A stretch of DNA of 64,000 bases from Shewanella livingstonensis (GTDB lineage Bacteria > Pseudomonadota > Gammaproteobacteria > Enterobacterales > Shewanellaceae), in contig NZ_CP034015.1 of NCBI RefSeq assembly GCF_003855395.1, forward strand, positions 2,490,001 to 2,554,000, read 5' to 3'. Below the pieces are notes generated by a model, which was not told where the DNA came from, searched no databases, and saw only the letters and a list, made by a program, of their open reading frames with translations. Every line of letters starts with the position of its first letter. Within the stretch, counting starts at the first letter, position 1. Made by a program: the position numbers and the translations under genes. Positions 28,454-60,674 of the stretch are shown here, in pieces.

Positions 28454-29368
28454 TTATGGGACAGGTATTTTGGTATTTGTTGCTGCAATAATCATTTTAT
28501 TTCTAAGCCATTTATTTGCAGGCTCTTTGTCGACATTAACATGCCAATATAAATGTACCCCTATGTCGGGTAATTCTACTGGCATAGGGTAGATAGAGAT
28601 ATCAAGCATCTTGCTATACATTGCAGCGGCTGTTTTCGGTAATGTTAGCAGCATGTCGTTATTTAAAATGACTCTACAGGCTGATAATGCGTGCTGGCAG
28701 CGTAACGATATTTTTCGATGTAAACCAATACGCGACAGTTCAAAATCTTCCAAACTAGGTCCAGTAGATCGAGATGATACAAGCACATGGTCTAGTCGTA
28801 AGTAAGTTTCTAAATCGAGTGTTTCTTTAATGGCAGGGTGGTTTTTACGCGCTACAACGACCAGTTGATCTAACTCTAATTGTGTATGCATAATATTATT
28901 GCTAACGGGTATTAAGGTGTCTATAGCTAAATCAATATCGCCACTGGCCAGTTTGTTTTCAAGTTCAGTACGTCTCACTCGTTTATTACTGCTTAAATTG
29001 ATGGCCGGCGATTCTAACAACAAGCTTTGTTGCAATATAGGCAAGTAATAGGGTTCTAATGAACCATGTAATGACAGTGAAAAGCTTTTACGTGAGGTTA
29101 AAGGCTCAAATTGCCTTGATTGCACCAAGCACACTTGTAATTGGTGCAAGGCTTCTCGCACATCATCAATCACATTTTTTGCCACAGGCGTTGGGCGCAT
29201 TTCGTTACCTTGCCTTATAAACAAAGCATCATCGAAATGGGTGCGTAATTTACCCAGTGAGTGGCTCACCGCTGGCTGCGATAAATTCAACACCGACGCC
29301 GCTTTAGTAATATTGCCTTCACAATATATTGCATCGAACACTACAAACAAATTCAAATCAATTTTCAT
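28454..29368 (-). CDS. LysR family transcriptional regulator
   Basis: A 304-residue LysR regulator. The N-terminal winged helix-turn-helix is LNLFVVFDAIYCEGNITKAASVLNLSQPAVSHSLGKLR, and the rest is a LysR substrate-binding domain. The ATG at 29368 was preferred over the GTG two codons upstream because GGAG lies five bases before it. It is divergent from the acyl-CoA catabolic series beginning at 29584; the 215-base gap holds a T-N11-A box at 29435-29457. The same box recurs before the MaoC gene, so this protein is the best candidate for regulator of both transcripts (inference). Confidence 0.9.
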   Translation of the reverse strand: MKIDLNLFVVFDAIYCEGNITKAASVLNLSQPAVSHSLGKLRTHFDDALFIRQGNEMRPTPVAKNVIDDVREALHQLQVCLVQSRQFEPLTSRKSFSLSLHGSLEPYYLPILQQSLLLESPAINLSSNKRVRRTELENKLASGDIDLAIDTLIPVSNNIMHTQLELDQLVVVARKNHPAIKETLDLETYLRLDHVLVSSRSTGPSLEDFELSRIGLHRKISLRCQHALSACRVILNNDMLLTLPKTAAAMYSKMLDISIYPMPVELPDIGVHLYWHVNVDKEPANKWLRNKMIIAATNTKIPVP

Positions 29369-29434
29369 ACTCACTCCAGTGATCTTCTGATGTGCATTAA
29401 GACCACCTTAGACGTGCCTACTATTTAAAATACA

Positions 29435-29489
29435 AATAGTAGGGTATTAGAACTATTCATTTGTTCAATTTAGATGTTGGCATTAGCAT
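29435..29489 (+). promoter_or_regulatory. LysR box and promoter, copy A
   Basis: AATAGT-N11-ACTATT (29435-29457) is a perfect LysR-type dyad. Directly adjoining are TTGTTC (29461-29466) and TAGCAT (29484-29489) with a 17-bp spacer, a plausible -35/-10 pair reading toward the gene at 29584. The block from the dyad to TAGCAT is repeated almost base for base, with the same spacing, at 38159-38213. Confidence 0.7.
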
Positions 29490-29583
29490 AGTCAAGTAGA
29501 TTCGATATAGCACAAAATACATTCAAAATAATTGATTGTTTACCAATTGAGTCATCATTCTTTTACTAAGTCAGAGAAACTAA

Positions 29584-30312
29584 ATGGCAGCAATTTATTT
29601 GATTCGACACGGACAAGCCTCTTTTGGAAGCACTGATTACGATCAATTATCAACCAAGGGTAGCCAGCAAGCTACATTACTAGGTGAATATTGGCGCTCC
29701 AGATCGGCCCCTAGCAAATTCTATTGTGGTGATTTGTTGCGCCATGGCCAAACGTTGACTCATTTTGTTAACGGCTACCAAGGTGAATCAACGCCGATGG
29801 TTATCCACTCGGGTTTTAATGAGTTTGATCATGTAGATATTTTGCAGAAATATAACGGCCAATGGCATGACTTTGCTCAGATGGCAGATCTGTTACAACA
29901 ATATGAAGAACCTAATAAAATACTCCACAAAGAGTTTTATCAAGCGTTAAATCGTTGGATGAGTGGTGATCACGATTTGGAATACAAAGAAAGTTGGCCA
30001 CAGTTTAAAAGTCGCTGTATTCGAGCGTTGCAAAATATTATTGAACAAGAATTAGTAAAAAAGCGACAGGGTAATAATGTCAACACCACAAAGTCTACAG
30101 ACATTGTAGTGTTTACATCTGGCGGTACTATTTCGACTATCGTGCAACATGTATTGCAATTAAGCGATCAACAAACGTTAGCGATTAATCAACAGACCAG
30201 AAATACCAGTGTGACCAAACTGCTTTTTTCCGAAAGCATGTTGAGCGTAGATTACTTCAATAACTACAGCCATTTAGAAGTTGCCGGTGATCAATGGATA
30301 ACCTTTAGATAA
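29584..30312 (+). CDS. Histidine phosphatase superfamily protein, second His replaced
   Basis: 242 residues in the phosphoglycerate-mutase-like fold. The N-terminal catalytic loop LIRHGQASFG with His9 is intact, as are the LLRHGQTL Arg and the NEFDH Glu region. In the C-terminal motif, where relatives have VSHGG, this protein has FTSGGTIS, so the second catalytic His seems replaced by Ser. It heads the acyl-CoA catabolic series, directly behind the LysR-controlled promoter. A phosphatase fits a pathway with a phosphorylated acyl intermediate, but the substitution raises doubt about normal activity. Confidence 0.85.
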   Translation: MAAIYLIRHGQASFGSTDYDQLSTKGSQQATLLGEYWRSRSAPSKFYCGDLLRHGQTLTHFVNGYQGESTPMVIHSGFNEFDHVDILQKYNGQWHDFAQMADLLQQYEEPNKILHKEFYQALNRWMSGDHDLEYKESWPQFKSRCIRALQNIIEQELVKKRQGNNVNTTKSTDIVVFTSGGTISTIVQHVLQLSDQQTLAINQQTRNTSVTKLLFSESMLSVDYFNNYSHLEVAGDQWITFR

Positions 30313-30447
30313 CGACATAGATATTGGAACCAAAACGTATATTGAAATTGACACGAACTTATACACACTTCTCTGTAACTCTTGCTTTAAAAGTAACATT
30401 TTGCTTTAAAAGTGACAGTTACCACCTAAATATAATAAGGAAATGAC

Positions 30448-31218
30448 ATGAATAAGGGCGATTTATTTGATTTAACAGGGAAAGTGGCATTAGTGACTGG
30501 GGCAAGCCGTGGTATTGGCGAAAGTGTTGCTAAAGTATTAGCCCAATATGGTGCTCATGTGATTGTATCCAGTCGAAAACTAGCAGCATGCCAAACAGTA
30601 GTCGATCAAATTGTTGCTGCAGGTGGCAGTGCACAAGCCATCGCTTGTCATATTGGCGAGTTAGATCAAATTGATTCAATTTTTGCCGCTATTAAACAGC
30701 AACATGGCAAGCTGGATATTTTGGTGAATAACGCCGCCGCTAATCCTTATTTTGGTCATATTATTGATACCGATTTGACTGCGTTTCAAAAAACGGTAGA
30801 TGTGAATATTCGCGGTTATTTCTTTATGTCGACCAAGGGGGCGCAATTAATGAAAGACAGCGGCGGCGGATCGATTGTCAATGTTGCTTCAGTTAACGGC
30901 GTTATTCCGGGTGATTTTCAAGGTATTTACTCCATTACTAAAGCGGCGGTTATTTCCATGACCCAAGCTTTTGCCAAAGAGTGTGCCCAGTTTAATATTC
31001 GCGTAAACGCATTATTACCCGGCGGCACTGACACTAAATTTGCTTCCGCACTTGTTGATAATCCAGCGATTCTTAAACAAATGATGCACCACGTACCGAT
31101 GAAGCGCGTTGCTCAACCAGATGAAATGGCGGGCACTGTCTTATATTTAGCCTCTAACGCATCAAGCTACACTACCGGCACAGCCATCAATGTCGACGGC
31201 GGCTATCTGATTGGTTAG
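30448..31218 (+). CDS. SDR family oxidoreductase
   Basis: A 256-residue classical short-chain dehydrogenase. Cofactor motif VTGASRGIGESVAKVL, structural NNAAANPYFG, catalytic Ser in VNVASVNG, and YSITKAAV (YxxxK) are all present, ending with the usual TGTAINVDGGYLIG. Likely oxidises a hydroxyacyl or alcohol intermediate. AATAAGGAAATGAC precedes the ATG, giving AAGGA. Member of the LysR-promoter transcript. Confidence 0.88.
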   Translation: MNKGDLFDLTGKVALVTGASRGIGESVAKVLAQYGAHVIVSSRKLAACQTVVDQIVAAGGSAQAIACHIGELDQIDSIFAAIKQQHGKLDILVNNAAANPYFGHIIDTDLTAFQKTVDVNIRGYFFMSTKGAQLMKDSGGGSIVNVASVNGVIPGDFQGIYSITKAAVISMTQAFAKECAQFNIRVNALLPGGTDTKFASALVDNPAILKQMMHHVPMKRVAQPDEMAGTVLYLASNASSYTTGTAINVDGGYLIG

Positions 31219-31253
31219 TCCCCAAACAATAACAAAAATTAGTTCAGGAATTC

Positions 31254-32381
31254 ATGATGAATAGCACTAAAAACACCAGCATAACTAAGTTGTTTGACCC
31301 GTTTACGACCAAATCGTTGTCTTTAAAAAACAAAACCGTTATGGCGCCGATGACACGTGCATTTTCGCCTAACTATATTCCTAATGATGAGGTTGCTGCC
31401 TATTACCGCCGACGTGCCGAAGGTGATGTGGGTCTTATTATTACTGAAGGGACCTTTATCTCCCATGAAGGTGCTAATGGATATGAGAATGTACCGGCGA
31501 TTTATGGTGAACAAGCTTTAGCTGGTTGGAAGCATGTTGTTGATGAAGTGCATGCCGTAGGCGGCAAAATAGCGCCACAACTTTGGCATGTGGGCTCGGT
31601 GAGAAAATTAGGAATTGGCCCACACAAAGAGGCGCCAGCTTATAGCCCTTCAGGTTTGTATAAGCCAGGTGCTGAAAATGGTGTTGCCATGACTCAAAAG
31701 GATATTGATGACGTGGTCGCATCATTTGCCCAGGCGGCGCTTGATGCTAAAAACATTGGCTTTGATGCTATTGAAGTTCACGGCGCCCATGGTTATCTAG
31801 TTGATCAGTTTTTTTGGCAAGGAACAAATCAACGAACCGATAAATACGGTGGCTCGTTAGAAAATCGTACTCGTTTTGGTGTCGAGATAGTCAAAGCAAT
31901 CCGCGCAGCAGTGGGTAACGACTTTACGATTATTTTCCGTTTTTCGCAGTGGAAACAACAAGATTACAACGCTAAATTGTGTCAAACACCTGAAGAGTTA
32001 GCCATCTTTTTAGGCTTATTAAGCGATGCTGGTGTCGATATATTTCACGCGAGTACTCGTCGTTTTTGGGTGGCAGAATTTGAAGGCTCTGATCTTGGTC
32101 TTGCGGGTTGGACTAAAAAGTTGACCAACAAGCCCGTGATCACTGTGGGTAATGTTGGTTTAGATGCGGACTTTATTGGTGAGGGTAATGCGGATTTGTC
32201 GGGGACCTCTAATCCAACGGGTATCGATGAGTTATTAGTGCGCTTAAACAATGATGAATTTGATTTAGTCGCCATTGGTCGTGCGCTATTAGTTGATCCG
32301 CAGTGGGTTAACAAAATTAAGCAGAATGCCATTGATGAGATTAAGCCGTTTAATAAAAAGTCATTAATGTCGTTGAGTTGA
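31254..32381 (+). CDS. Old Yellow Enzyme family NADH:flavin oxidoreductase
   Basis: 375 residues with an FMN TIM barrel: KNKTVMAPMTRAFSPN at the N terminus, IAPQLWHVGSVR, and HGAHGYLVDQFFWQGTNQRTD with KYGGSLENR. The order is typical of Old Yellow Enzyme-type enone/dienoyl reductases (12-oxophytodienoate reductase, NemA). No Fe-S Cys cluster of the FadH (2,4-dienoyl-CoA reductase) type is seen. Probably reduces an activated double bond in the catabolic series. AGGAATTC lies before the first of two adjacent ATGs. Confidence 0.9.
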   Translation: MMNSTKNTSITKLFDPFTTKSLSLKNKTVMAPMTRAFSPNYIPNDEVAAYYRRRAEGDVGLIITEGTFISHEGANGYENVPAIYGEQALAGWKHVVDEVHAVGGKIAPQLWHVGSVRKLGIGPHKEAPAYSPSGLYKPGAENGVAMTQKDIDDVVASFAQAALDAKNIGFDAIEVHGAHGYLVDQFFWQGTNQRTDKYGGSLENRTRFGVEIVKAIRAAVGNDFTIIFRFSQWKQQDYNAKLCQTPEELAIFLGLLSDAGVDIFHASTRRFWVAEFEGSDLGLAGWTKKLTNKPVITVGNVGLDADFIGEGNADLSGTSNPTGIDELLVRLNNDEFDLVAIGRALLVDPQWVNKIKQNAIDEIKPFNKKSLMSLS

Positions 32382-32455
32382 TCAGTTGAGTCAGTGGGTT
32401 AACACTCATAGTGAGCGCTATTAACGCAGTCATTACCAGGTAAAAGGATAACGAA

Positions 32456-33667
32456 ATGAATTTTGAATATAGCGAAAAAGTTCAAGAATTAATCAAACGA
32501 GTCAACGACTTTATGGATTTGCATGTGTTTCCAGTAGAGGAAGAAATGCATAAGCAAGTTGAGCTTGATCCCTGGTCAACGCCACCGTTAATGGAACAAC
32601 TTAAAGCCAAGGCCAAGGCAGAAGGGCTATGGAATTTATTTTTACCGGTTGTCTACGGCAAATACAGTGCCGGACTCACCAATTTAGAATATGCACCGCT
32701 TGCTGAAATTATGGGCAAAGTGATGTGGGCACCTGAAGTGTTTAACTGCTCAGCGCCCGATACTGGCAACATGGAAGTACTGGCTAAATACGGTAGTGAA
32801 GCACAAAAGAAACAATGGTTAGAGCCGTTACTTGACGGAAAAATACGCTCTGCTTTTGCAATGACAGAACCAGAAGTGGCTTCAAGCGATGCGACTAATA
32901 TTGAATTGAGCATAGTGCGTGATGGCGATGAATATGTGATTAATGGCCGCAAGTTTTACATTAGCGGCGCATGCCGTAAGCAATGCGAAATTATGATTGT
33001 GATGGGTAAAACCGACCCTGATAACAGCAACCGCTATATTCAGCAATCGCAAGTGCTTGTGCCGATGAACACTCCAGGTGTCACTATGGTGAGACCGATG
33101 AAAGTGTTTGGATATGACGATTCACCAGAAGGACATGCTGAGGTAACGTTTACCAATGTGCGTGTCCCACTTGAAAATATTATTGCCGGCGAAGGCAAAG
33201 GCTTTGAAATTGCTCAAGGTCGTCTTGGCCCTGGTCGTATTCATCACTGTATGCGTTCAGTCGGTATTGCTCAGCGGGCGCTAGATTTGATGTGTAAACG
33301 AGTTGGCGAGCGCATTGTATTTGGTCAACCGATGATAAAACAACAATCGGTACGTGAAGATATTGCCAAATCAGCCTGCCAAATTGAACAAGCGCGGTTG
33401 ATGACTTTAAAAGCGGCGCAAAAAATGGACACTGAAGGCAATAAAGCCGCTAAAGAGTTAATAGCGATGATTAAAATTGTCGCCCCAAGTATGTCGCTTG
33501 ATGTAATAGACCGGGCGATTCAATGTCATGGTGCTGTGGGCGTGAGTCAAGACACCTTTTTAGCACATGCTTGGGCTGGCCAGCGAACGTTACGTTTAGC
33601 CGATGGTCCTGATCAAGTGCATATGATGCAGTTAGGTCGAGATTTAGTCAAAAAAATCGTTGTATAA
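32456..33667 (+). CDS. Acyl-CoA dehydrogenase (ACAD10/11-like)
   Basis: A 403-residue flavoenzyme. The FAD/substrate stretch is [15 protein letters not shown], followed by [12 protein letters not shown] and [22 protein letters not shown], and a C-terminal [25 protein letters not shown] helix with [11 protein letters not shown]. This is the ACAD10/ACAD11 subfamily style rather than short-chain ACADs. It sits directly before a phosphotransferase gene, and in animals and in Pseudomonas levulinate catabolism the same two activities act in succession on 4-hydroxyacyl-CoA. AAAAGGATAACG gives the ribosome site. Confidence 0.9.
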
Positions 33668-33763
33668 GAGTATTTTCGAGTTGAAATGCAGTAAGCGTTG
33701 CAACTCGTTATCGCGCTTTTACTTAGCTAAATCACATCAATAAAACCACGAGAGTATGACTCA

Positions 33764-34801
33764 ATGTCACAAGTATTCCCTATCAATAATGAACAGCTTA
33801 GTGCTTATTTAGAGCAATATGTTGAAGGTTTTAAAGGGCCAATTAGCCTAGAAAAGTTTTCTGGTGGTCAATCAAACCCAACTTACAAAGTGACCTCAGC
33901 ATCAGGTGTGTATGTGTTACGTCGCCAACCGCCGGGTAAATTATTAAAGTCGGCCCATGCAGTAGACCGTGAGTATCGGGTATTACATGCGCTTAAAGAT
34001 AGCGATGTGCCCGTGGCTAGCGTGTTTCACCTGTGTGAAGACATCAGCGTAATCGGTTCAATGTTTTATGTAATGGAGTTTTGCGATGGCACGGTTTATT
34101 GGAGTGCATCATTAGCCGAAATTGATACAAACGATCGACGTTCAGCTATGTATAACGCGATGAATAAGGTCTTAGTTGCGCTGCATAGTGTTGATGTTAA
34201 TGCGGTTGGTTTAGCCGATTACGGTAAAGCGGGTAATTACTTTGAACGTCAACTGGGTCGTTGGACTTCACAATACCGCGCGACAGAATTAAAAAAAATT
34301 GTCGCCATGGACGAGTTAAGTCAATGGCTTGAGCAACATTTACCCCATGATGATGGCCGTGTTTGTTTAGTCCATGGTGACTTTCGTTTAGACAATATGA
34401 TGTTTGCTAAAGATAAGCCTGAAGTGATCGCCTTACTCGATTGGGAGTTATCAACTCTAGGTCATCCATTTGCTGATTTAGCTTATCAATGCATGCAACT
34501 GCGTATGCCTGCTGGTATGGGCACCATTGACGGTTTAAAAGATATCGACCGTGCCAGTTTAGGTATCCCGTCTGAAGAGGAATATGTCGCACTATATTGC
34601 CAACGTATGGGTATTGAGCAGATTGAGCACTGGGGTTTTTATCTGGCGTTTAGTTTTTTTCGTTTAGCAGCAATTGCTCAAGGTGTGGCTAAACGTGCCA
34701 GCGAAGGTAATGCCTCTAATGAACATGCCAATAAAGTGGGCGCATTTGTTGAGCCACTGGCCAAAATGGCCTTAGAGGTGATAGCCAATGAAACAAAGTG
34801 A
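33764..34801 (+). CDS. APH-type phosphotransferase (LvaA/ACAD10-kinase-like)
   Basis: 345 residues with an aminoglycoside-phosphotransferase/choline-kinase fold. KFSGGQSNPTYKVT with YVLRRQPPGKLLKSAHAVDREYRVL forms the nucleotide lobe, LVHGDFRLDNMMF is the catalytic HxDxxxxN loop, and LLDWELSTLGHPFADLAY carries the metal-binding Asp. Not antibiotic resistance: the sequence style and the neighbour match the kinase domain of ACAD10/11 and LvaA, which phosphorylate 4-hydroxyacyl-CoA. Substrate here is inferred. Confidence 0.88.
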   Translation: MSQVFPINNEQLSAYLEQYVEGFKGPISLEKFSGGQSNPTYKVTSASGVYVLRRQPPGKLLKSAHAVDREYRVLHALKDSDVPVASVFHLCEDISVIGSMFYVMEFCDGTVYWSASLAEIDTNDRRSAMYNAMNKVLVALHSVDVNAVGLADYGKAGNYFERQLGRWTSQYRATELKKIVAMDELSQWLEQHLPHDDGRVCLVHGDFRLDNMMFAKDKPEVIALLDWELSTLGHPFADLAYQCMQLRMPAGMGTIDGLKDIDRASLGIPSEEEYVALYCQRMGIEQIEHWGFYLAFSFFRLAAIAQGVAKRASEGNASNEHANKVGAFVEPLAKMALEVIANETK

Positions 34802-35008
34802 TCGACATTAGTTATCGCCTAGCGGCTGCCAGAATTCAGCAAAAAACCTTTAGCGTTAAGTCATTAACACTCAGCAATCAACTAAAAATATTCAGCGACA
34901 AACAAGCAGTAATAAATAATTAGTCATAAACAACAAAATATAAAAATAACATCAATAAGACTATCGAACATAGCATCAACAAGACCATCAATTACAGGAG
35001 TTACTCGC

Positions 35009-35770
35009 ATGGATCCATTATTAGACTTTACCGGTAAGGTAGCCGTTATTACTGGCGCAGCTCAAGGCTTTGGTCAATTACTGGCACAAGAGTTAGCCAA
35101 ACGTGGCGCTAAATTAGTCATTAGCGACATTAATGAAGCGGGCGTGAAAAAAGTGGCGGCCGATATTGCTGCCACGGGAGCCGACGTTATTGCAATGCAA
35201 TGCGATGTGTCGAAAGAGGCGTCATGTAAAGCTATGGTTGATAGTGCGATTGAACATTTTGGTCGCGTCGATATTGGGGTCAATAATGCCGGCATTGCCC
35301 ATGAGTTTATGCCGCTTCATCTCATCGATGAAGCGATTATGGACAGCCAATTTGCGGTTAATGTTAAAGGTGTGCAATTTGGTATGCGCCATCAAATACA
35401 GCAAATGCTAAGGCAAGGCGAGGGCGCCATTCTCAATGTAAGCTCGATGGCGGGTCTTGGCGGCGCAGCCAGAGGCAGTGCATATTCAATGGCTAAACAT
35501 GCGGTAATTGGCTTAACCAAAACTGGCGCGGTTGAATACGGGCGTAACAATATACGCATTAATGCAATATGCCCGTTCTTTACCCTTACGCCGATGGTGA
35601 CTAACTTTGCTGACGAAGAAAAGCAAAAGAAAATGGCCCTCGGCGCACCAATGAATCGTTTAGGTGAGCCAAAAGAAATTGTTACCGTGATGCTGATGAT
35701 GTTGTCACCTGCCAACACTTATATGACAGGCCAATGTATTGCCGTCGATGGCGGTGTATCAGCGTTCTAA
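35009..35770 (+). CDS. SDR family oxidoreductase
   Basis: 253 residues, classical SDR: VITGAAQGFGQLLAQEL, a cofactor Asp in LVISDINEAG (suggesting NAD), NNAGIAHEFMPLHL, ILNVSSMAGLGG, and the active-site YSMAKHAV. GGAGTTACTCGC lies before the ATG. Placed between the kinase and the large acyl-CoA dehydrogenase in the same transcript. Confidence 0.88.
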   Translation: MDPLLDFTGKVAVITGAAQGFGQLLAQELAKRGAKLVISDINEAGVKKVAADIAATGADVIAMQCDVSKEASCKAMVDSAIEHFGRVDIGVNNAGIAHEFMPLHLIDEAIMDSQFAVNVKGVQFGMRHQIQQMLRQGEGAILNVSSMAGLGGAARGSAYSMAKHAVIGLTKTGAVEYGRNNIRINAICPFFTLTPMVTNFADEEKQKKMALGAPMNRLGEPKEIVTVMLMMLSPANTYMTGQCIAVDGGVSAF

Positions 35771-35868
35771 CTGTTGCAGCGAGTATGAGTCCATGAACCT
35801 CATTTTCTCAGCCCTTCGCTTAATCATTTTCAATGTAATAGAACAACACAAAATAAGAAGAGAGTATT

Positions 35869-37674
35869 ATGCCTGCAACGTTAATGAATCAACGCGACCT
35901 TGAATTTATGCTGTATGAACTGTTTGATAGTGAAGCATTAACCAGCAGAGAGCGTTACCAAGATCATGATCGCCAAACCTTTAATGAAGTGGTTAATACC
36001 GCCAAAACGATTGCTGAAAAGTATTTTCTTCCTATTCGCCAAAAACTTGATACCCATCAACCTACCTTTGATGGTAAAAAAGTACATATTATTCCTGAGC
36101 TTAAAATAGCCATTGACGCAGTAAACGAGTCAGGTATTGGCGCTGCCACTGCTGATTATGATTTAGGTGGTATGCAATTGCCGCCCATTATAGCCAGTGC
36201 AGCGGGGGCGTATCTTAGTGTTGCTGGCGGCGTAGGCATGGGTTACAACATGTTGACGACCGCAAATGCTAATTTACTCCAAGCCCATGGTAGCCCTGAG
36301 CTAATTGAAACCTGGGTTAAACCGATGCGAGAAGGTCGATTTATGGGCACTATGGCCATGACCGAACCAGGCAGCGGCTCTGCGTTAGGTGATTTAATCA
36401 CTAAAGCGGTTAAAGCCGATGATGGTACTTATCGTATTAGCGGTAATAAAATCTATATCTCCGGTGGTGACCATGATTTAAGTGACAACATTGTTCATTT
36501 AGTGTTGGCACGTATTCAAGGTGCACCCAAAGGCGTCAAAGGGATTTCGTTATTTGTGGTGCCTAAATTTTTACTTAATGATGATGGTTCAATTGGTGCA
36601 GACAATGAAGTCGCGCTTGCAGGGTTATTTCATAAAATGGGCGGCCGAGCTCAAACCTCTACCGCACTCAGTTTCGGTGAAAAAAATGGATCGATTGGCT
36701 ATTTAGTCGGTGAAGAACATTGCGGCTTAAAATACATGTTCCACATGATGAACGAAGCCCGGATTATGGTCGGCACTAGCGGTGCTGTGCTGGCAGTTGC
36801 TGGTTATCAATATTCTGTCGATTACGCCAAAAACCGCCCGCAAGGTCGATTACCATCATGTAAAGATCCACACTCTCCAATGGTCAATATTATTGAGCAT
36901 GCAGATGTAAAGCGAATGCTATTAGCTCAAAAAGCCTATGCAGAAGGGGCTATGGCCTTAGTGTTGTACGGCACTCAACTAAGTGATGATTCTCATACCG
37001 CAGACACACCTGAGCAACGTCAACATGCGCATACCTTGTTAGATTTTTTAACCCCAATCATTAAAACATGGCCGTCGGAATATGGCCCTAAGGCCAACTC
37101 ATTGGCGATTCAAGTAATGGGTGGTCATGGCTATATTAATGAACATCCAGTTGAAATGTTCTACCGTGATAATCGCTTAAACCCCATTCACGAAGGTACT
37201 ACCGGTATTCAGTCTTTAGATTTAATGACTCGCAAAGTGCCGATGAATAACATGGAGGGTTATAAGGCAACATTAGCTGAAATAGTAAAAACCATTGATG
37301 AGGCTAAGCAATACCCCAGTTTAAATGAATTTTCTAATCAGCTAAGCCAAGCGGTTGCAACATTAACTATCACCACCAAAGCGGTGTTAAGCGCGATGTC
37401 GAATACTAATATTGATTTGGCGCTGGCCAATTCAGTGAAATACTTAGAGTTATTTGGTCATGTGATTATTGGGTGGTTATGGCTCAAGCAAAGCATTGTC
37501 GCCACAAAAGCATTAGCCCAGCAACCACATCAATCTGACGTGCATTTTTACCAAGGTAAATTACAAGCCAGTCAGTATTTTTATCGCTTTGAATTACCTG
37601 AAATAAGCCTGTGGTCAAACTTATTGATTAATACTGATAGCACCAGCTTTGATATGCAGCCAGATTGGTTTTAA
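35869..37674 (+). CDS. Long acyl-CoA dehydrogenase with C-terminal extension
   Basis: 601 residues. The core has MGTMAMTEPGSGSALGDLITKA, ISGNKIYISGGDHDL, and QVMGGHGYINEHPVEMFYRDNRLNPIHEGTTGIQSLDLM. The Glu in the last stretch probably acts as the catalytic base of this family. About 130 extra residues follow the core, as in DmdC-like and AidB-neighbour long ACADs of marine bacteria. It ends the first LysR-controlled series; a strong terminator follows. Confidence 0.9.
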   Translation: MPATLMNQRDLEFMLYELFDSEALTSRERYQDHDRQTFNEVVNTAKTIAEKYFLPIRQKLDTHQPTFDGKKVHIIPELKIAIDAVNESGIGAATADYDLGGMQLPPIIASAAGAYLSVAGGVGMGYNMLTTANANLLQAHGSPELIETWVKPMREGRFMGTMAMTEPGSGSALGDLITKAVKADDGTYRISGNKIYISGGDHDLSDNIVHLVLARIQGAPKGVKGISLFVVPKFLLNDDGSIGADNEVALAGLFHKMGGRAQTSTALSFGEKNGSIGYLVGEEHCGLKYMFHMMNEARIMVGTSGAVLAVAGYQYSVDYAKNRPQGRLPSCKDPHSPMVNIIEHADVKRMLLAQKAYAEGAMALVLYGTQLSDDSHTADTPEQRQHAHTLLDFLTPIIKTWPSEYGPKANSLAIQVMGGHGYINEHPVEMFYRDNRLNPIHEGTTGIQSLDLMTRKVPMNNMEGYKATLAEIVKTIDEAKQYPSLNEFSNQLSQAVATLTITTKAVLSAMSNTNIDLALANSVKYLELFGHVIIGWLWLKQSIVATKALAQQPHQSDVHFYQGKLQASQYFYRFELPEISLWSNLLINTDSTSFDMQPDWF

Positions 37675-37698
37675 TTTAGTCACTAATCTACTGTTTAT

Positions 37699-37722
37699 CC
37701 AATGCTGCTTAAGCTGCATTGG
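37699..37722 (+). repeat. Near-perfect 24-bp palindrome
   Basis: CCAATGCTGCTTAAGCTGCATTGG is a palindrome apart from two T-T mismatches, 25 bases after the stop codon of the 601-residue ACAD gene. It lacks a T run, so it may act as an mRNA 3-prime stabiliser rather than as a terminator. Confidence 0.55.
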
Positions 37723-37788
37723 AGTTCCGTTTGGCTTAATAGCGTTAGTTAACAATTAGTAAAGTTATATAAGCGAATTTAATAATCA

Positions 37789-37822
37789 CATTACTGCTAT
37801 TAGCGGTAATGTTTTTGTTTTT
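37789..37822 (+). terminator. Rho-independent terminator of the first catabolic series
   Basis: CATTACTGCT and AGCGGTAATG pair over ten positions (one G-U) with an ATT loop, followed directly by TTTTTGTTTTT. It separates the 29.6-37.7 kb series from the series starting at 38275. Confidence 0.88.
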
Positions 37823-37862
37823 AAAGCCCGCACTATATTGACACTTCAGCACCCTCTCAATC

Positions 37863-38142
37863 TAGGGCCTGTTGATCTTTCAAGGTTATTTTTGCAGCGA
37901 ATTGTTGGCCATTACTCACATTTACAACTGCGCGGCAGAGACTTTGAGGTGTAGTTATTCTACATAAAAAGTCGATAACACAGTAAAAATGGCCAACAAA
38001 CGCTGCCCGAAGGGTTCGGCTAAAAACGTTTTACTCTTTGTTGAATGCATTTTGCTTAGATGACTAGGCATCAATCCATTCGCCTCGATTAAAACGTTTT
38101 TAACTCGAACAAAATTCAACCAGCAAAGATCAACAGGCCCTA
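37863..38142 (-). mobile_element. MITE-like dispersed repeat, copy 3 (280 bp)
   Basis: Has perfect 18-bp terminal inverted repeats, TAGGGCCTGTTGATCTTT and its complement, and a sequence nearly identical to copy 2. It lies between the terminator of the first catabolic series and the promoter of the second, ending 17 bases before the LysR box. A 65-codon frame inside has no transposase motif. Confidence 0.9.
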
Positions 38143-38158
38143 GGCTATTCATCTTGTG

Positions 38159-38213
38159 AATAGCTTAGTATCAAAACTATTCATTTGTTTAATTTACCTA
38201 CCGCACTTAGCAT
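38159..38213 (+). promoter_or_regulatory. LysR box and promoter, copy B
   Basis: AATAGC-N11-ACTATT (38159-38181) followed by TTGTTT (38185-38190) and TAGCAT (38208-38213), spacer 17 bp. It aligns without gaps with the promoter at 29435-29489; AACTATTCATTTGTT is identical in both. It drives the MaoC-SDR-thiolase series. Confidence 0.7.
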
Positions 38214-38274: not shown

Positions 38275-38736
38275 ATGCCGACAGTCATTAATCGTAACGA
38301 TATTGCCAACTATATTGGTCACCAAGCAACGCCAACCCAGTGGTATCAAATCAGCCAAAATCAAATTAATCAATTTGCAGATTGCACTCTGGATCATCAA
38401 TTTATTCACGTCGATGTTGAAAAAGCTAAAGCAACACCTTTTGGCTCGACCATTGCTCACGGCTTTTTATCATTATCAATGTTGTCTCATTTTGCTGAAG
38501 AATTTAGCGTCATTATTGATGGCTTTTATATGGGCCTCAATGCTGGTTTCGATAAAGTCAGATTTTTGCAGCCTGTCACAGTTAATAGCCGCATTAGAGC
38601 CCATGCGAAAACCCTTTCTATTGAAGAGAAAAAACCCGGCCAATTTCGCATATCAACCGAAGTAACCATTGAAATTGAAGGTGTAGATACACCAGCACTG
38701 GTTGCCGAGTGGATTTCAGTGCAAATGGTTAAGTAA
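38275..38736 (+). CDS. MaoC family enoyl-CoA hydratase
   Basis: 153 residues, a single hot-dog domain. The catalytic D-x4-H motif is seen in FADCTLDHQFIHVD, and FGSTIAHGFLSLSML matches the hydratase-2 motif. Likely (R)-specific hydration of enoyl-CoA, paired with the following MFE2-type dehydrogenase. AAAGGGAATC lies before the ATG. First gene behind promoter copy B. Confidence 0.92.
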   Translation: MPTVINRNDIANYIGHQATPTQWYQISQNQINQFADCTLDHQFIHVDVEKAKATPFGSTIAHGFLSLSMLSHFAEEFSVIIDGFYMGLNAGFDKVRFLQPVTVNSRIRAHAKTLSIEEKKPGQFRISTEVTIEIEGVDTPALVAEWISVQMVK

Positions 38737-38817
38737 TGTCGATTAAGGCATGATCGTTAAATATAGATATTGATTAAAAAGAAAAATAATAAATAAAAAC
38801 AAAATTAAGGTAATAAC

Positions 38818-39738
38818 ATGACAATCAGTTTTGCAGGGAAAGTGGCTATTGTAACGGGTGCGGGTAATGGTTTAGGCCGTTCACATGCACTGGAATTAGC
38901 CCGACGCGGCGCCAAAGTGGTTGTTAATGATTTAGGTGGATTGCGTGATGGTAGTGGCGCATCTTCTGCCGCGTCTCAAGAGGTTGTAGAGTTAATTAAA
39001 GCGATGGGCGGCGAGGCTATGAGTCATGGCGCTAATGTTGCCCATTTTGACGAAGTGCAAGACATGGTGCAACAAACCATGGATAAATGGGGCCGTGTCG
39101 ATATTTTGATTAATAACGCCGGTATTTTACGCGATAAGTCGTTTTCTAAAATGACCTTAGATGACTTTAAGCTGGTCATGGACGTACATGTTATGGGGTC
39201 GGTTAACTGCACTAAAGCGGTGTGGGAAATCATGAAGCAACAAAACTACGGCCGAATCGTAATGACAACCTCATCAAGTGGCATGTACGGCAACTTTGGT
39301 CAGGCCAATTATGGTGCTGCTAAAATGGCGCTAATCGGCCTAATGAATACCTTAGTGCTCGAAGGTGCTAAAAATAATATCAATATCAATGCGCTTGCGC
39401 CAACGGCTGGCACACGTATGACCGAAGATTTAATGCCTGAAGAAATCGTTAAAGCCTTTGCTCCAGAAGCGGTAACCGCAGGAATGCTGACCTTGTGTGA
39501 TGAAGATGCGCCAAATCGATTTATTTTATGTGCCGGAGCTGGCGGATATTCAAGCGCGAGTATTTTTGAAACCGAAGGCTGCTTTATTCCTACTGCGAAA
39601 CAAAGCCCAGAAACCGTGCGTGAAAACTGGGATCAGCTCACCGATCAACACCATCAAAAAGCTTTACTCTCTGGTGCGCAACAAGGCGAAAAATTTGTTA
39701 TGAAGGCCATGGCGTTCATGAAATCTCAACAACGCTAA
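38818..39738 (+). CDS. MFE2-type (R)-3-hydroxyacyl-CoA dehydrogenase (SDR)
   Basis: 306 residues, in the style of the dehydrogenase part of the peroxisomal multifunctional enzyme 2 (HSD17B4). VTGAGNGLGRSHALELARRGAKVVVND and NNAGILRDKSFSKMTLDDF are family hallmarks, with YGNFGQANYGAAKMAL as active site. In MFE2 it acts on the product of the hydratase-2 domain, which is encoded separately just upstream here. TAAGGTAATAAC gives the ribosome site. Confidence 0.92.
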   Translation: MTISFAGKVAIVTGAGNGLGRSHALELARRGAKVVVNDLGGLRDGSGASSAASQEVVELIKAMGGEAMSHGANVAHFDEVQDMVQQTMDKWGRVDILINNAGILRDKSFSKMTLDDFKLVMDVHVMGSVNCTKAVWEIMKQQNYGRIVMTTSSSGMYGNFGQANYGAAKMALIGLMNTLVLEGAKNNININALAPTAGTRMTEDLMPEEIVKAFAPEAVTAGMLTLCDEDAPNRFILCAGAGGYSSASIFETEGCFIPTAKQSPETVRENWDQLTDQHHQKALLSGAQQGEKFVMKAMAFMKSQQR

Positions 39739-39791
39739 ACGAGTATTAATTAATTTACCGCGTATTACCGTTAATTATAAAAGGATTTATC

Positions 39792-40973
39792 ATGAGAGAA
39801 GCCGTCATTGTATCCGCCGCCAGAACCCCGATTGGTAAAGCTTATCGCGGCGCCTTTAATGATTTGTCTGCACCCACATTAGCCGCTGTAGCGGTAAATG
39901 CAGCAGTAGAAAGAGCGGGAATAGATCCTAATGAAATTGAAGACTGTATTTTTGGCGCAGCCTTAACCCAAGGCAACCAAGGCATGAACTTTGGTCGTCA
40001 AGTGGCCATGGCGGCGCAATTACCGGTTTCTGTACCCGGCATGACAGTCGACCGTCAATGTTCATCTGGATTAATGTCTATTGCCATTGCCGCCAACCAT
40101 ATTGTGTGTGATGGTGCCCAAGTTGTGGTTGCCGGTGGTTGTGACTCTATCAGCTTGGTACAAAACGATAAGATGAACATGCATCGCGTGGTAGACCCTA
40201 GCGTAAAAGCCTATCGTCCAGCGATTTATATGCCGATGCTCGATACCGCTGAAGTGGTGGCTAAGCGATATGGTATTTCACGTGAGGCACAAGATGCCTA
40301 CGCATTATTATCCCAACAACGCACCGCAGCAGCCCAAGTTGAAGGCCGATTTGATGCTGAAATAGTGCCCGTCAGTTGCACTATGCTAGTGATGGACAAA
40401 GCCAGCGGTGAAATCAGTAAACAGGCAGTAACCTTAACTAAAGATGAAGGTAATCGCCCATCAACTAATTTAGACGGTTTAGCGGGCTTAAAAGCGGTTA
40501 AAGAAAACGGATCGATTACCGGCGGTAATGCATCACAACTTTCTGATGGCGCAGCAGCCGTGGTGGTAATGGAACGTCAACTCGCCGAGCAACGAGGCTT
40601 AACGCCATTAGGCGTGTACCGTGGCATGGTGGTTACTGGGTGTGAGCCTGATGAGATGGGCATAGGTCCTATTTATGCTATTCCTAAATTACTTGAGCGC
40701 CACGGCCTAAACATCGACGATATTGGTTTATGGGAAATCAATGAGGCGTTTGCGGTTCAGGTCATTTACTGTGCTGAAAAGCTGGGTATTCCTGCTGATC
40801 GCTTAAACGTTGATGGCGGCGCCATCTCAATTGGTCATCCATACGGCATGAGCGGCACACGTATGGTGATGCACGCATTGATTGAAGGTAAACGCCGTGG
40901 GGTTAAATACGTGGTTGTTAGTATGTGTATTGGCGGTGGTCAAGGCGCAGCAGGCTTATTTGAAGTGCTATAA
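39792..40973 (+). CDS. Acetyl-CoA C-acyltransferase (thiolase)
   Basis: 393 residues, thiolase II family. The nucleophile Cys is near residue 90 in [30 protein letters not shown] supplies the His near 349; [13 protein letters not shown] supplies the second Cys near 379. Completes the spiral hydratase-dehydrogenase-thiolase in gene order. AAAGGATTTATC before the ATG. Confidence 0.94.
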
Positions 40974-41204
40974 GGTTAATGCTGATGCTAACTGCTAGCA
41001 AAGTCGTACGTTAAGTTTTAATTTAAGATTTGTGTGTAGATTAAGAGAAAGTACAAAATAAGTACAAAATAAATAAAATGAAAAGCGTGAGTTTGCACAT
41101 TTACAATAATAATAAACATTGATAGCGGCTAGGGTATTGGGTTCTGTTGCGTATTTGAGATGAACTTCACAGCTGCTAATAACATTACATTTGGGGACAA
41201 TATT

Positions 41205-42869
41205 ATGGAAAAGATTTGGCTTGAAAAGAGTTATCCGCCTGGGGTTGAGTTTGAAATCAATCCTGATAAATATAATTCTTTGGCAGATTTGTTTTTAAAA
41301 TACACCAAGTTATATGCCGCGAATACAGCATTTATCAATATGGATGTGAGTATCACTTATCAGCAGCTTGCACAACAGGCGACTGATTTTGCCGCTTACT
41401 TACAGCAAGATTTGGGCTTAGTAAAAGGCGATAAATTTGCCATTATGATCCCTAATACGCTGCAATATCCTATCGCGTTATTTGGCGCGCTTATTGCTGG
41501 CCTCACGGTTGTTAACGTTAACCCTTTGTATACTGCTCGCGAGCTTGAACATCAATTAAAAGACTCGGGTGCTAAAGGGATCCTAATCCTCGAAAACTTT
41601 GCTCATGTATTGCAAGCCGTTATGGATAAAACCGATGTTAAGCATGTTATTACCACTGGCGTAGGTGACCGTTTAGGGCTGATTAAAGGTGCACTTATTA
41701 ATGGTGCTATTAAGCATGTTAAAAAATTGGTGCCTGCATTTGATTTACCTACTGCGATTAAATTTAATGATGCTATGTCCAGGGGCAGTAAACAAACATT
41801 TATACCTGTTGAGGTTATTGGGTCTGATTTGGCCTTTTTACAATATACCGGTGGCACTACAGGTCCATCAAAAGGCGCTATGCTGACTCATCGTAATATG
41901 GTTGCTAACCTTGAACAGTCAAATGCAATGACCAAAAATGTCTACGAAGTAGGTAAAGAAATCATTGTCACCGCATTGCCGCTTTATCATATTTACGCCT
42001 TAACCTCTAATTGCTTAGCCTTTTTACCCTTTGGTGGCATCAATCTATTAATCACTAATCCACGTGACATGGCGGGTTTTGTTAAAGAGTTAGCTAAATA
42101 TCGCTTTACGGTGATTACTGGCGTAAACACATTATTTAACGGCTTGTTGCATACCCCAGGGTTTGACCAACTTGATTTTAGTGCCTTAAAAATGGGTTTT
42201 GGTGGCGGTATGTCGGTGCAGCGACCCGTTGCAGAACTTTGGGAAAAAGTCACTAAAAGCCGCCTCTTAGAAGGATATGGTTTAACTGAGTGCGCACCTT
42301 TAGTGACCATGAGTCCTTATAATCAAAAAAGTTACAATGGCTCAATTGGCTTGCCTGCACCTTCAACCGATATTCGTCTTGTGGGGGCCGATGGTGAAGA
42401 CGTGGCGTTAGGCGAGCCAGGTGAAATGTGGGTTAAAGGCCCACAGGTGATGAAAGGTTACTACAATCGTCAAAAAGCCACTGATGAAGTACTGATTGAT
42501 GGTTGGCTAGCCACTGGTGATATTGCCACCATGGATGAAACTGGTTTTTTCAAAATTGTTGACCGTAAAAAAGACATGATTAACGTTTCTGGCTTTAACG
42601 TGTTTCCAAACGAGATTGAAGAAGTGCTGGTGATGCATGAAGGTATACTTGAAGCTGCGGCTGTAGGGACCTCGTGTGATATTACTGGTGAACGAGTTAA
42701 AGTGTATATTGTTAGAAAAGATCCAACCCTTACAGAACAAGATGTGTTTGACCATTGTAATAAAATGCTCACTAACTATAAGCGTCCTAAGGTGGTTGAG
42801 TTTATGAATGAATTACCTAAAAGTAATGTCGGTAAGGTTCTACGAAAAGATCTTCGTAATAAGGCATAA
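41205..42869 (+). CDS. fadD: Long-chain fatty acid-CoA ligase
   Basis: About 554 residues, adenylate-forming enzyme. The AMP motif YTGGTTGPSKGAMLTH, GYGLTECAPLV, GWLATGDIA and DRKKDMINVSGFNVFPNEIE are as in FadD. The start at 41205 (MEKIWLEKSYPPGV) was chosen because GGGGACA lies before it and because FadD proteins begin similarly; the longer frame at 41160 lacks a ribosome site. It activates fatty acids for the pathway upstream. It may be a second FadD copy dedicated to this cluster, so substrate range is open. Confidence 0.9.
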   Translation: MEKIWLEKSYPPGVEFEINPDKYNSLADLFLKYTKLYAANTAFINMDVSITYQQLAQQATDFAAYLQQDLGLVKGDKFAIMIPNTLQYPIALFGALIAGLTVVNVNPLYTARELEHQLKDSGAKGILILENFAHVLQAVMDKTDVKHVITTGVGDRLGLIKGALINGAIKHVKKLVPAFDLPTAIKFNDAMSRGSKQTFIPVEVIGSDLAFLQYTGGTTGPSKGAMLTHRNMVANLEQSNAMTKNVYEVGKEIIVTALPLYHIYALTSNCLAFLPFGGINLLITNPRDMAGFVKELAKYRFTVITGVNTLFNGLLHTPGFDQLDFSALKMGFGGGMSVQRPVAELWEKVTKSRLLEGYGLTECAPLVTMSPYNQKSYNGSIGLPAPSTDIRLVGADGEDVALGEPGEMWVKGPQVMKGYYNRQKATDEVLIDGWLATGDIATMDETGFFKIVDRKKDMINVSGFNVFPNEIEEVLVMHEGILEAAAVGTSCDITGERVKVYIVRKDPTLTEQDVFDHCNKMLTNYKRPKVVEFMNELPKSNVGKVLRKDLRNKA

Positions 42870-42928
42870 GCTTAAATCTCGGCAACACTGTCGGCATGTA
42901 TTGTCGACAGTTCAATAATAAGAATCCT

Positions 42929-43993
42929 ATGTTAGAAATCTATGCCGGTGAAATGGCGTTAAGAAAGATCCATCAGGATGGATTTTCTCCAGCGATATTT
43001 AGCGCTTTTCTTGGTGCAAGTGGTGGACCTAAATGGTTTACCTTATTGGGATTAGATAAATATATCTTTGGTGAATTTTTTAATGGCAGGCAGCAGCCAT
43101 TAAATGTTATTGGTTCAAGTGCTGGTGCTTTTCGTGCGGCATGCTTTGCCCAACATGATCCCGTTGCAGCAATTGAACGTTTAGCTAAAAATTACAGTGA
43201 AACCGTGTATTCAGATGATAAGAAACCTCAGGCTGAAGAAATCACCACCAAAGCTTTTGAATTACTCGAAGTCCTTTTTGGCGATACCGGTGCCGATGAA
43301 ATTATCAATAATCCGGTATTCAAAGCTCATTTTATCGTTGCTAAGTGCAATGGATTAGTCGCTTCAGAAAATAAGTTTAAACAAACGCTTGGGTTAACTC
43401 ACAGTTTTATCCGCAACGCTATCAGTCGACCATTACTCAATCGTCAGTATGAACGGTATATTTTTCAGCATAAGCACAGTGATTTGGTTATTGTTGATCC
43501 CGATAATATTCCAACTACAGCAGTGGCTTTTAGCCCACAAAATATCAAAGATGCATTATTGGCATCGGGTTCTATTCCTGTAGTGATGCAAGGTATAAAA
43601 GACATTACTGATTGTCCTCCGGGCATGTATCGCGATGGCGGGATTATTGATTATCATTTTGACTTTAAAATTCAAAATGAAGGGTTAATCCTTTATCCTC
43701 ATTTTAGTTCAACTTTAAAAGCGGGCTGGTTTGATAAAAATTTATCGCGAAAAGTCCGACTAGAGCACTACGATAAAACCGTATTATTGTGTCCTTCTGC
43801 AGAGTTTATTGATTCATTGCCCTACCATAAAATTCCCGACCGTACTGATTTTATCGAAATGAAACCAGCACAACGGATCCAATATTGGCAACAGGTTTTT
43901 GTTGAAAGTGAAAAACTTGCCCAGCACTTTAAACACTTTTATCAAACACAAAATATCAGCAGTATAAAAAGCATCAAGCAACTCATCACGTAA
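42929..43993 (+). CDS. Patatin-like phospholipase family protein
   Basis: About 354 residues. A patatin Ser-Asp dyad is visible: GASGGPKW as oxyanion-type Gly loop, IGSSAGAFRA with GxSxG near residue 65, and YRDGGIIDYH with the DGG Asp near residue 240. Start moved to 42929 (MLEIYAGEMALRK). No signal peptide. Probably releases acyl chains from a lipid or thioester for the neighbouring ligase; this is inference. Confidence 0.82.
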   Translation: MLEIYAGEMALRKIHQDGFSPAIFSAFLGASGGPKWFTLLGLDKYIFGEFFNGRQQPLNVIGSSAGAFRAACFAQHDPVAAIERLAKNYSETVYSDDKKPQAEEITTKAFELLEVLFGDTGADEIINNPVFKAHFIVAKCNGLVASENKFKQTLGLTHSFIRNAISRPLLNRQYERYIFQHKHSDLVIVDPDNIPTTAVAFSPQNIKDALLASGSIPVVMQGIKDITDCPPGMYRDGGIIDYHFDFKIQNEGLILYPHFSSTLKAGWFDKNLSRKVRLEHYDKTVLLCPSAEFIDSLPYHKIPDRTDFIEMKPAQRIQYWQQVFVESEKLAQHFKHFYQTQNISSIKSIKQLIT

Positions 43994-44055
43994 TAACATT
44001 CATCTATCAGCATGACGAATAACGATTATTCATTTACATACAAAGGGAATCAAAT

Positions 44056-58850: not shown

Positions 58851-58921
58851 ATTGGGCCTCTTAAAGTAGATTGTTTATCGGTATGAGTTATTTGAGTCGT
58901 TGCCGAGAGTTGGGGTAATGA

Positions 58922-60664: not shown

Positions 60665-60674
60665 GACGATATCC

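What the first reader, a model, noticed from the sequence alone, without database searches (positions are those of the whole stretch)
29435..38213. Two nearly identical LysR-box promoters 8.7 kb apart define one regulon
29435-29489 and 38159-38213 align without gaps: AATAG(T/C)-N11-ACTATT, a shared CATTTGTT, a 17-bp spacer, and TAGCAT. N11 differs more than the arms, as expected for a binding site under selection. One copy is next to a divergent LysR gene; the other lies just after a terminator and a mobile repeat, before the MaoC gene. This suggests the second operon was split off and kept its control. The same site should mark other regulon members in the genome.
Basis: partly seen in the sequence, partly recalled or inferred. 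Interest (0 to 1): 0.75.

Follow-up and report, generated by a model that had tools for sequence, protein, structure and literature searches.

The report
LysR regulon for hydroxy-fatty-acid breakdown
Two look-alike promoters in this marine Shewanella genome belong to a predicted four-promoter control circuit, run by one LysR-type regulator, over a large gene set that probably imports and breaks down hydroxylated fatty acids.

Summary
The regulon idea is strongly supported. The box lies upstream of the LysR gene in 34 of 34 named loci. In 129 Shewanella genomes it scores 47 bits or more in the 20 with the orthologue and at most 23.9 in the other 109. Among 394 order-wide genomes the 12 with the orthologue are the 12 best box scorers.

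The site is two tandem ATT-N9-AAT elements 32 bp apart, a standard LysR layout near -66 and -34 (starts inferred).

Two further promoters share the layout 4 kb past the window: one before a TonB-receptor operon running back into it (57750-63518), one, weaker, before an acyl-CoA dehydrogenase. The mobile repeat is a late insertion. The second box looks gained inside an older contiguous operon.

The genes include ACAD10/11-type kinase and dehydrogenase halves, suggesting 4-hydroxyacyl catabolism. Binding, inducer and substrate are untested.

The parts
28454..29374 (-). LysR-type regulator gene (start at 29374 GTG or 29368 ATG); predicted controller of the regulon
   Evidence: Pfam HTH_1 and LysR_substrate above cut-off; orthologues of 71% identity or more in 20 of 129 Shewanella genomes, own included, and 63-97% in 34 named loci
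29421..29439 (+). promoter 1, upstream (recognition) site CTATT-N9-AATAG, centre 29430, about -66
   Evidence: ATT-N9-AAT here in 28 of 32 LysR-adjacent boxes
29453..29471 (+). promoter 1, downstream (activation) site CTATT-N9-AATTT, centre 29462, about -34, overlapping the -35
   Evidence: ATT-N9-AAT in 32 of 32 LysR-adjacent boxes
29461..29489 (+). promoter 1 core: TTGTTC, 17 bp, TAGCAT
   Evidence: sequence; conserved in the alignment
29467..29495 (-). predicted lysR promoter, TTGACT-17-TAAATT, whose -10 lies on the right half of the activation site
   Evidence: AGTCAA follows the TAGCAT in 28 of 32 LysR-adjacent boxes and 0 of 32 other boxes; AATTTA in 26 of 32 against 1 of 32, that one being the window's own promoter 2
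29584..37674 (+). operon 1: histidine phosphatase, SDR, OYE-type flavin oxidoreductase, ACAD11-like dehydrogenase (32456-33667), APH-type kinase (33764-34801), SDR, second acyl-CoA dehydrogenase
   Evidence: that they form one transcript is inferred from spacing
37863..38142 (.). MITE-like repeat with inverted ends, a late insertion upstream of promoter 2; not part of the control region
   Evidence: at least 40 copies in the genome (40 of 83 candidates scored); absent at the same place in relative G020
38145..38163 (+). promoter 2, upstream site CTATT-N9-AATAG, centre 38154
   Evidence: right half less constant in relatives
38177..38195 (+). promoter 2, downstream site CTATT-N9-AATTT, centre 38186
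   Evidence: ATT-N9-AAT in 22 of 22 boxes of the set not next to LysR
38185..38213 (+). promoter 2 core: TTGTTT, 17 bp, TAGCAT
38275..45054 (+). operon 2: MaoC dehydratase, SDR, thiolase, FadD-type ligase, patatin-like, CurA-type enone reductase; 45152-47266 molybdopterin oxidoreductase may follow
   Evidence: the patatin-like and molybdopterin names are read by eye from the sequence, not from a family search; one transcript is inferred
57750..63518 (-). window part of operon 3: GSDH-like, alpha/beta hydrolase, two enoyl-CoA hydratases, SBF transporter, DUF2855; its upstream genes (hydrolase, nitroreductase, TonB receptor) and its box (window-equivalent 68100-68168) lie beyond the window end
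   Evidence: one transcript is inferred

Best explanation
A LysR-type regulator, as a tetramer, sits on two same-oriented ATT-N9-AAT elements whose centres are 32 bp (about three helical turns) apart, near -66 and -34, at each of four promoters. With an inducer it activates a sigma-70-type promoter (TTGTTY-17-TAGCAT at promoters 1 and 2). At its own gene the downstream element covers the -10 of the divergent lysR promoter, giving autoregulation. The targets are two acyl-CoA/short-chain-dehydrogenase operons, a TonB-receptor, SBF-transporter and enoyl-CoA-hydratase operon, and a further large acyl-CoA dehydrogenase. Together they most likely take up and degrade fatty acids that carry a hydroxyl group, using a split ACAD10/11-type kinase-dehydrogenase pair (as LvaA/LvaC) to remove a 4-hydroxyl. 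Shown by comparison: the boxes, their geometry, their conservation and their co-occurrence with the regulator. Inferred: binding, tetramer, activation rather than repression, the inducer, the transcription starts, the operon extents and the substrate class. The confidence given is for the LysR regulon; for the 4-hydroxy substrate class it is about 0.5.
For: Box upstream of the regulator in 34 of 34 named loci, score 38-46 of 46, against a maximum of 30 in one draw of 683 kb of first-order Markov sequence. The neighbour varies but the box stays: histidine phosphatase in most loci, TonB receptor in L125, L126, L129, L131 and L132, APH kinase in L128, SDR2 in L130. Box and orthologue coincide in 20 of 20 against 0 of 109 Shewanella genomes at 24 bits or more, and in 12 of 12 against 0 of 382 order-wide at 28.9 bits or more (cut-off set afterwards, next best 27.7). 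A third box at 28.7-41.6 bits occurs in 17 of 20 regulator-bearing Shewanella, although no Shewanella third box was in the training set. By coordinates the TonB receptor lies 207-241 bases downstream of it in 14 of the 17 and in part in one more, G132. In G068, where receptor to SBF are missing, the box stands before the enoyl-CoA hydratase. A divergently facing fourth box lies 174-251 bases away (low coordinate to low coordinate) in 13 of the 17, in the part of the list shown. The lysR promoter overlap is supported by AGTCAA in 28 of 32 LysR-adjacent boxes against 0 of 32 others. ACAD1 matches ACAD11 chains at 446-453 bits and the putative dehydrogenase 4hr3 at 427, against 154 for the next dehydrogenase. 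The APH protein matches 3dxp (named putative acyl-CoA dehydrogenase) at 373 bits and the ACAD11 kinase part at 268-272.
Against: No binding, expression or growth data. The third and fourth boxes depart from consensus: box 3 has CAATT in place of the second CTATT, and box 4 keeps ATT-N9-AAT at the downstream site in 0 of 5 and at the upstream site in 3 of 5 examined and scores only 18.3 bits in this genome, no better than some background matches. Regulator and genes are inherited together, so co-occurrence partly reflects shared descent, and many of the 34 loci are close relatives. Some genomes counted are the same species as loci in the training alignment. The order-wide gap is narrow (28.9 against 27.7 bits). 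Three Shewanella with a 42%-identical LysR and core genes have no listed model match above background; the two examined show only a partial box (29 and 28 of 46). Nothing tests the 4-hydroxy substrate, and the histidine phosphatase, OYE and nitroreductase are not explained by it.
Confidence: 0.85

Rival explanations
1. The boxes are bound by another regulator (global or encoded elsewhere), and the LysR gene is only a neighbour or one more target.
For: No binding data. Three promoters in this genome away from the LysR intergenic region also carry the box.
Against: Genomes without the orthologue have no box at 24 bits or more, 0 of 109. The layout with T-N11-A at about -65 and a site over the -35 is the LysR-family one as described in PMC8407307 (passages). 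The box stays upstream of lysR when the gene beside it changes.
Confidence: 0.08
2. One reading: AATAGY-N11-ACTATT is the primary palindrome and the upstream CTATT is incidental.
For: It is a perfect 6-bp inverted repeat in copy 1 and intact in 23 of 32 LysR-adjacent boxes.
Against: Intact in only 6 of 22 boxes not next to LysR and in 0 of 10 third- and fourth-type boxes; its left arm decays in copy 2 of relatives. The ATT-N9-AAT geometry recurs at both sites (48 and 54 of 54).
Confidence: 0.12
3. The regulon serves ordinary or branched fatty acids, steroid side chains or another hydrophobic substrate, not 4-hydroxy acids.
For: Most genes are generic beta-oxidation types; a bile-acid-symporter-family (SBF) transporter and a TonB receptor are present.
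Against: An ACAD11-like dehydrogenase and APH-type kinase are neighbours in operon 1 of most loci long enough to show them; L125 and L130 lack them in the stretch held, and L128 shows the kinase alone. ACAD10/11 and LvaA/LvaC act on 4-hydroxyacyl-CoAs (PMC11342911, passages and section 13; PMC12440821, passages).
Confidence: 0.35
4. The second promoter is an old operon break that kept the ancestral control.
For: Same gene order and same box; L121 has a MaoC box although it is outside the Shewanella clade; starred branches of the tree force only one change.
Against: Seven loci have ACAD2 and MaoC contiguous without a box between, in the lineages around the clade; flanks outside the box show no evident similarity between copies 1 and 2.
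Confidence: 0.25

Closest known systems
LysR-type (LTTR) recognition/activation promoter architecture
   Same: 50-60 bp site, T-N11-A element near -65, second element over the -35 (general description read in PMC8407307 passages); divergent regulator gene
   Different: The two elements are both ATT-N9-AAT and 32 bp apart; I did not see that exact sequence in the passages read
Pseudomonas lva operon (LvaA kinase, LvaC dehydrogenase, activator LvaR)
   Same: Separate APH-type kinase and ACAD10/11-type dehydrogenase encoded next to each other; SDR and ligase genes also present (lva gene content beyond LvaA, LvaC and LvaE recalled)
   Different: Here the regulator is LysR-type and the set includes a TonB receptor, SBF transporter, OYE, two more large ACADs and a beta-oxidation set; the family of LvaR was not stated in the passages read
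Mammalian ACAD10/ACAD11
   Same: ACAD1 and the kinase resemble the two ACAD11 domains; the ADGPD stretch of ACAD11 is kept
   Different: Two polypeptides instead of one; bacterial, in a predicted inducible regulon
BsrA (Pseudomonas LTTR)
   Same: Best NCBIfam match of the regulator, 215.9 bits
   Different: Far under the family cut-off of 480; BsrA is reported to bind 765 regions with little conserved beyond T-N11-A (PMC8407307 passages), here four sites in one neighbourhood
Reconstructed Shewanella regulons (BMC Genomics 2011, PMC3223726)
   Same: Same comparative method and genus, includes S. frigidimarina NCIMB 400; lists FadR and PsrA for fatty acid degradation
   Different: No row of the two tables names a hydroxy-fatty-acid regulon; the rows marked in S. 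frigidimarina alone are AlgR and MtlR2. Section 6 part 1 and section 8 were read; section 6 part 2, the additional files and the families of the SO-numbered regulators were not seen

Membership tests
LysR-type regulator | N-terminal HTH_1 and C-terminal LysR substrate-binding domain | tested here: met
   both above cut-off
LTTR-controlled promoter | T-N11-A dyad near -65, second element overlapping -35 | tested here: met
   by sequence and conservation; the start site itself is inferred
LTTR-controlled promoter | binding by the named regulator | not testable with these tools
   co-occurrence only
LTTR-controlled promoter | divergent, overlapping regulator promoter | tested here: met
   TTGACT-17-TAAATT by sequence; AGTCAA in 28 of 32 LysR-adjacent boxes and 0 of 32 others; promoter activity untested
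BsrA equivalog | NCBIfam NF050187 score at or above 480 | tested here: not met
   215.9 bits
ACAD10/11-LvaC type dehydrogenase | much closer to ACAD10/11 than to other ACADs | tested here: met
   446-453 against 154 bits, the putative dehydrogenase 4hr3 (427) aside
ACAD10/11-LvaC type dehydrogenase | catalytic aspartate | tested here: inconclusive
   RLADGPD aligned identically to human ACAD11; that this Asp is the catalytic one is recalled, not mapped here
ACAD10/11-LvaA type kinase | similarity to the ACAD11 kinase domain with HGD...N motif | tested here: met
   268-272 bits to 8v3u/8v3v; HGDFRLDN read in the sequence (motif recalled)
4-hydroxyacyl catabolic pathway | phosphorylation and phosphate elimination from 4-hydroxyacyl-CoA | not testable with these tools
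   no assay

The most novel reading that the evidence does not exclude
A dedicated LysR-type regulon of marine Shewanella, Colwellia and kin for sensing, importing through the outer membrane and degrading oxygenated (4-hydroxy and enone) lipids. It would be a whole-cell bacterial counterpart of ACAD10/11 metabolism, with a LysR protein that senses such a lipid or its CoA ester.
Probability: 0.4. Interest if true: 0.62.

Novelty: new member of a known kind. Interest (0 to 1): 0.47.

Why it matters
It gives an exact, testable DNA code for a regulator and assigns about 24 genes to one circuit, including a TonB receptor and transporter that could not be linked to the pathway from the window alone. 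It offers a bacterial system, with regulator and uptake genes attached, for the recently described ACAD10/11 route for 4-hydroxy fatty acids.

Tried and rejected

Short pattern CTATT-N9-AATAG-N13-CTATT with up to 3 mismatches: useless genome-wide, 187+156 hits against 227+226 for the reversed control; only the two exact hits mean anything. The longer pattern in 99 genomes with up to 3 mismatches hit 23: the 8 regulator-bearing Shewanella (0-1 mismatch in each one's best match) and 15 others at 2-3 mismatches, like the control counts.

First script consensus had one base too many and gave deflated scores; corrected, and only one search is used.

Rows left out of the 52-box alignment: three near-duplicate LysR-adjacent boxes (L105, L109, L113), the MaoC box of L109, and weaker or shifted boxes scoring 31-36 (L124 1067, L125 6629, L128 11878 and 11979, L133 9885); the two window boxes and the third and fourth boxes were kept out on purpose. 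The tree labels counted six contiguous ACAD2-MaoC loci; L125, the seventh, was overlooked there.

Hit at genome 4403148 with 3 mismatches: not among the listed model matches; taken as chance. Two further weak matches in this genome at E up to 0.5 were not listed and not examined.

Mobile repeat as the carrier of the promoter: rejected, since it is absent in G020 while the promoter is kept, and the flanking loci of G068 and G080 show no match to it. Plasmid collection: 13 records with 68-79% identical copies, in Pseudoalteromonas, Vibrio and Catenovulum.

Literature: the rows listed by searches showed no paper on this regulon; most lists were cut, subscription papers are not held, and RegPrecise itself was not seen.

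Trees: the LysR tree has 17 of 34 inner branches starred and three long rows, so the number of gains of box 2 is not settled.
Full report
OBSERVATION. The two stretches are as described: 40 of 55 positions agree without gaps. Outside 29421-29489 and its counterpart the flanks show no evident similarity. So the pair is real and specific.

REGISTER. Both copies read CTATT-N9-AATAG-N13-CTATT-N9-AATTT, then 12 bases and TAGCAT. In the recognised LysR-family layout (T-N11-A element near -65 and a second element over the -35; passages of PMC8407307) the upstream element is the recognition site and the downstream one the activation site. If transcription starts about 7 bases after TAGCAT (inferred), their centres lie at -66 and -34, 32 bp or about three turns apart.

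CONSERVATION. The regulator's orthologues were found in 34 named loci of Shewanella, Cognaticolwellia, Colwellia, Litorilituus, Thalassotalea, Thalassomonas and unassigned MAGs, 63-97% identical. All 34 have the box in the region upstream of lysR, scoring 38-46 of 46 fixed positions; one draw of first-order Markov sequence of the same total length (683 kb) reached 30. Many of the 34 are close relatives, so they are not independent.

CO-OCCURRENCE. A sequence-only model was built from 52 boxes that exclude the window and the Shewanella third and fourth boxes. In 129 Shewanella genomes (own included) 20 have an orthologue of 71% identity or more and three have a relative of 42% at E up to 1e-60. 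The best model score is 47.1 bits or more in the 20 and 23.9 or less in the other 109 (stricter filters). In a sample of 394 genomes of the order, own included, 12 have an orthologue at E of 1e-100 or better. The same 12, and no other, have a box of 28.9 bits or more, by coordinates beside the regulator. That cut-off was set after seeing the scores, and the next best elsewhere is a partial match of 27.7 bits. Some of these genomes are the species of the training loci.

THE REGULON. In this genome the model gives four sites in 39 kb: boxes 1 and 2 (65.8 and 62.2 bits), box 3 at genome 2558100-2558168 on the minus strand (39.9 bits) and box 4 at 2558287-2558355 on the plus strand (18.3 bits, in the range of background). 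Window position 1 is genome 2490001, so boxes 3 and 4 lie 4.1-4.4 kb beyond the window end. Box 3 heads a TonB-dependent receptor, nitroreductase, alpha/beta hydrolase, DUF2855 protein, SBF transporter, two enoyl-CoA hydratases, alpha/beta hydrolase and GSDH-like protein; the last six are inside the window at 57750-63518. Box 4 heads a large acyl-CoA dehydrogenase. Box 3 is found in 17 of the 20 regulator-bearing Shewanella; the receptor starts 207-241 bases downstream in 14 of them and is matched in part in a fifteenth, G132. In G068 the genes from receptor to SBF are missing and the box stands before the first hydratase; the seventeenth, G073, was not examined. G027, G101 and G151 gave no third box; G151 has the receptor, matched from residue 16 on, the other two have no receptor match at E up to 1e-150. 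Box 4 is listed within 251 bases of box 3, facing away, in 13 of the 17, which is why I count it in spite of its score (five compared). In five loci (L125, L126, L129, L131, L132) the receptor instead lies beside the regulator, with the box in front of it. In four of these the histidine-phosphatase operon behind it has its own box; in L125 a second receptor copy and the OYE gene have theirs. In L128 a weaker box (34 of 46) precedes the SBF gene. These rearrangements argue that the box travels with function rather than with place.

LYSR GENE ITSELF. After TAGCAT the LysR-adjacent boxes share AGTCAA (28 of 32) and AATTTA at the downstream site (26 of 32); the other boxes do not (0 of 32 and 1 of 32, the one being promoter 2 of the window). 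Read on the other strand these are TTGACT-17-TAAATT, a good promoter for lysR whose -10 is covered by the activation site. Autoregulation is thus the likely reason for the extra conservation (inference).

HISTORY. Box 2 occurs in 19 of the 20 Shewanella; in G027 the contig ends before its expected place. In seven named loci (L118, L125, L127, L128, L130, L133, L135) ACAD2 and MaoC are about 45-105 bp apart and no box lies between. On the LysR tree, with six of these labelled, the MaoC box needs two changes, though well-supported branches force only one. A promoter gained inside a long operon explains this with least effort, so 'split off and kept its control' is only partly right. The repeat at 37863-38142 has at least 40 copies in the genome, is absent at this place in G020, and is not matched in the corresponding stretches of G068 and G080. 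The box-1 to box-2 distance is 217-514 bases shorter in G020, G062, G068, G073 and G080 and 46 shorter in G025. It is a late neighbour. Cognaticolwellia-type regulators group with Shewanella ones, which suggests transfer of the cluster between families.

WHEN THE REGULATOR DIVERGES. G120, G121 and G124 have a 42%-identical LysR with an APH-kinase orthologue of 64-65% about 3.4 kb from it. In the two examined (G120, G124) the intergenic region keeps AATAG or AATAA and GGTATCAAAA but not CTATTCATTTG. G112 has a related gene set (APH 55%) without the orthologue and no box at E up to 0.5. This fits co-evolution of site and protein but is weak evidence.

FUNCTION. ACAD1 (32456-33667) scores 446-453 bits against ACAD11 chains, 427 against the putative dehydrogenase 4hr3, and 154 at best against any other dehydrogenase. 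The neighbouring kinase-like protein scores 373 bits against 3dxp, named a putative acyl-CoA dehydrogenase, and 268-272 against the kinase part of ACAD11. ACAD10/11 and the bacterial LvaA/LvaC phosphorylate 4-hydroxyacyl-CoA and eliminate the phosphate (PMC11342911, passages and section 13; PMC12440821, passages). With a ligase, thiolase, hydratases, dehydrogenases, enone reductase, TonB receptor and transporter, the regulon plausibly imports and degrades hydroxylated fatty acids. Chain length, inducer and the roles of the histidine phosphatase, OYE and nitroreductase are unknown.

KNOWN OR NEW. The kind of system is ordinary: a LysR-type catabolic regulon. I saw no description of this one in the rows listed by six literature searches or in the two main-text tables of the Shewanella regulon survey, which does list FadR and PsrA for fatty acid degradation (PMC3223726, section 6 part 1 and section 8; its additional files and the RegPrecise database were not seen).

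Noticed in passing
57750-63518 (minus strand): These window genes are the tail of a TonB-receptor operon whose promoter box lies outside the window; from the window alone they look unrelated to the LysR cluster.
   Followed up: yes
37863-38142: A 280-bp MITE-like repeat with inverted ends, at least 40 copies in this genome, with 68-79% identical relatives on Pseudoalteromonas, Vibrio and Catenovulum replicons.
   Followed up: partly
L107, L108, L109, L110, L119: Regulators of Cognaticolwellia and two uncultured Colwellia (86-92% identical to the window's) group among Shewanella ones in the tree, suggesting transfer of the cluster between families.
   Followed up: partly
L127 about 9457-9952; L133 about 9769-9953: Two boxes some 430 bases (L127) or 120 bases (L133, one weak) apart between LysR and the histidine phosphatase and no receptor gene, as if the TonB receptor had been lost and its promoter left behind.
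   Followed up: no
G080, G132, G143 (TonB receptor orthologues): The receptor gene matches as two separate pieces or only in part in these genomes, so it may be broken or cut by assembly.
   Followed up: no
L124 1067 (+), L130 10262 (+): A box downstream of lysR, facing away from it; no homologue of the window proteins compared was found on that strand behind it. Possible further regulon members.
   Followed up: no
55976-57217: An open frame that looks like an IS4-type transposase (judged by eye from the sequence) between the two parts of the regulon.
   Followed up: no
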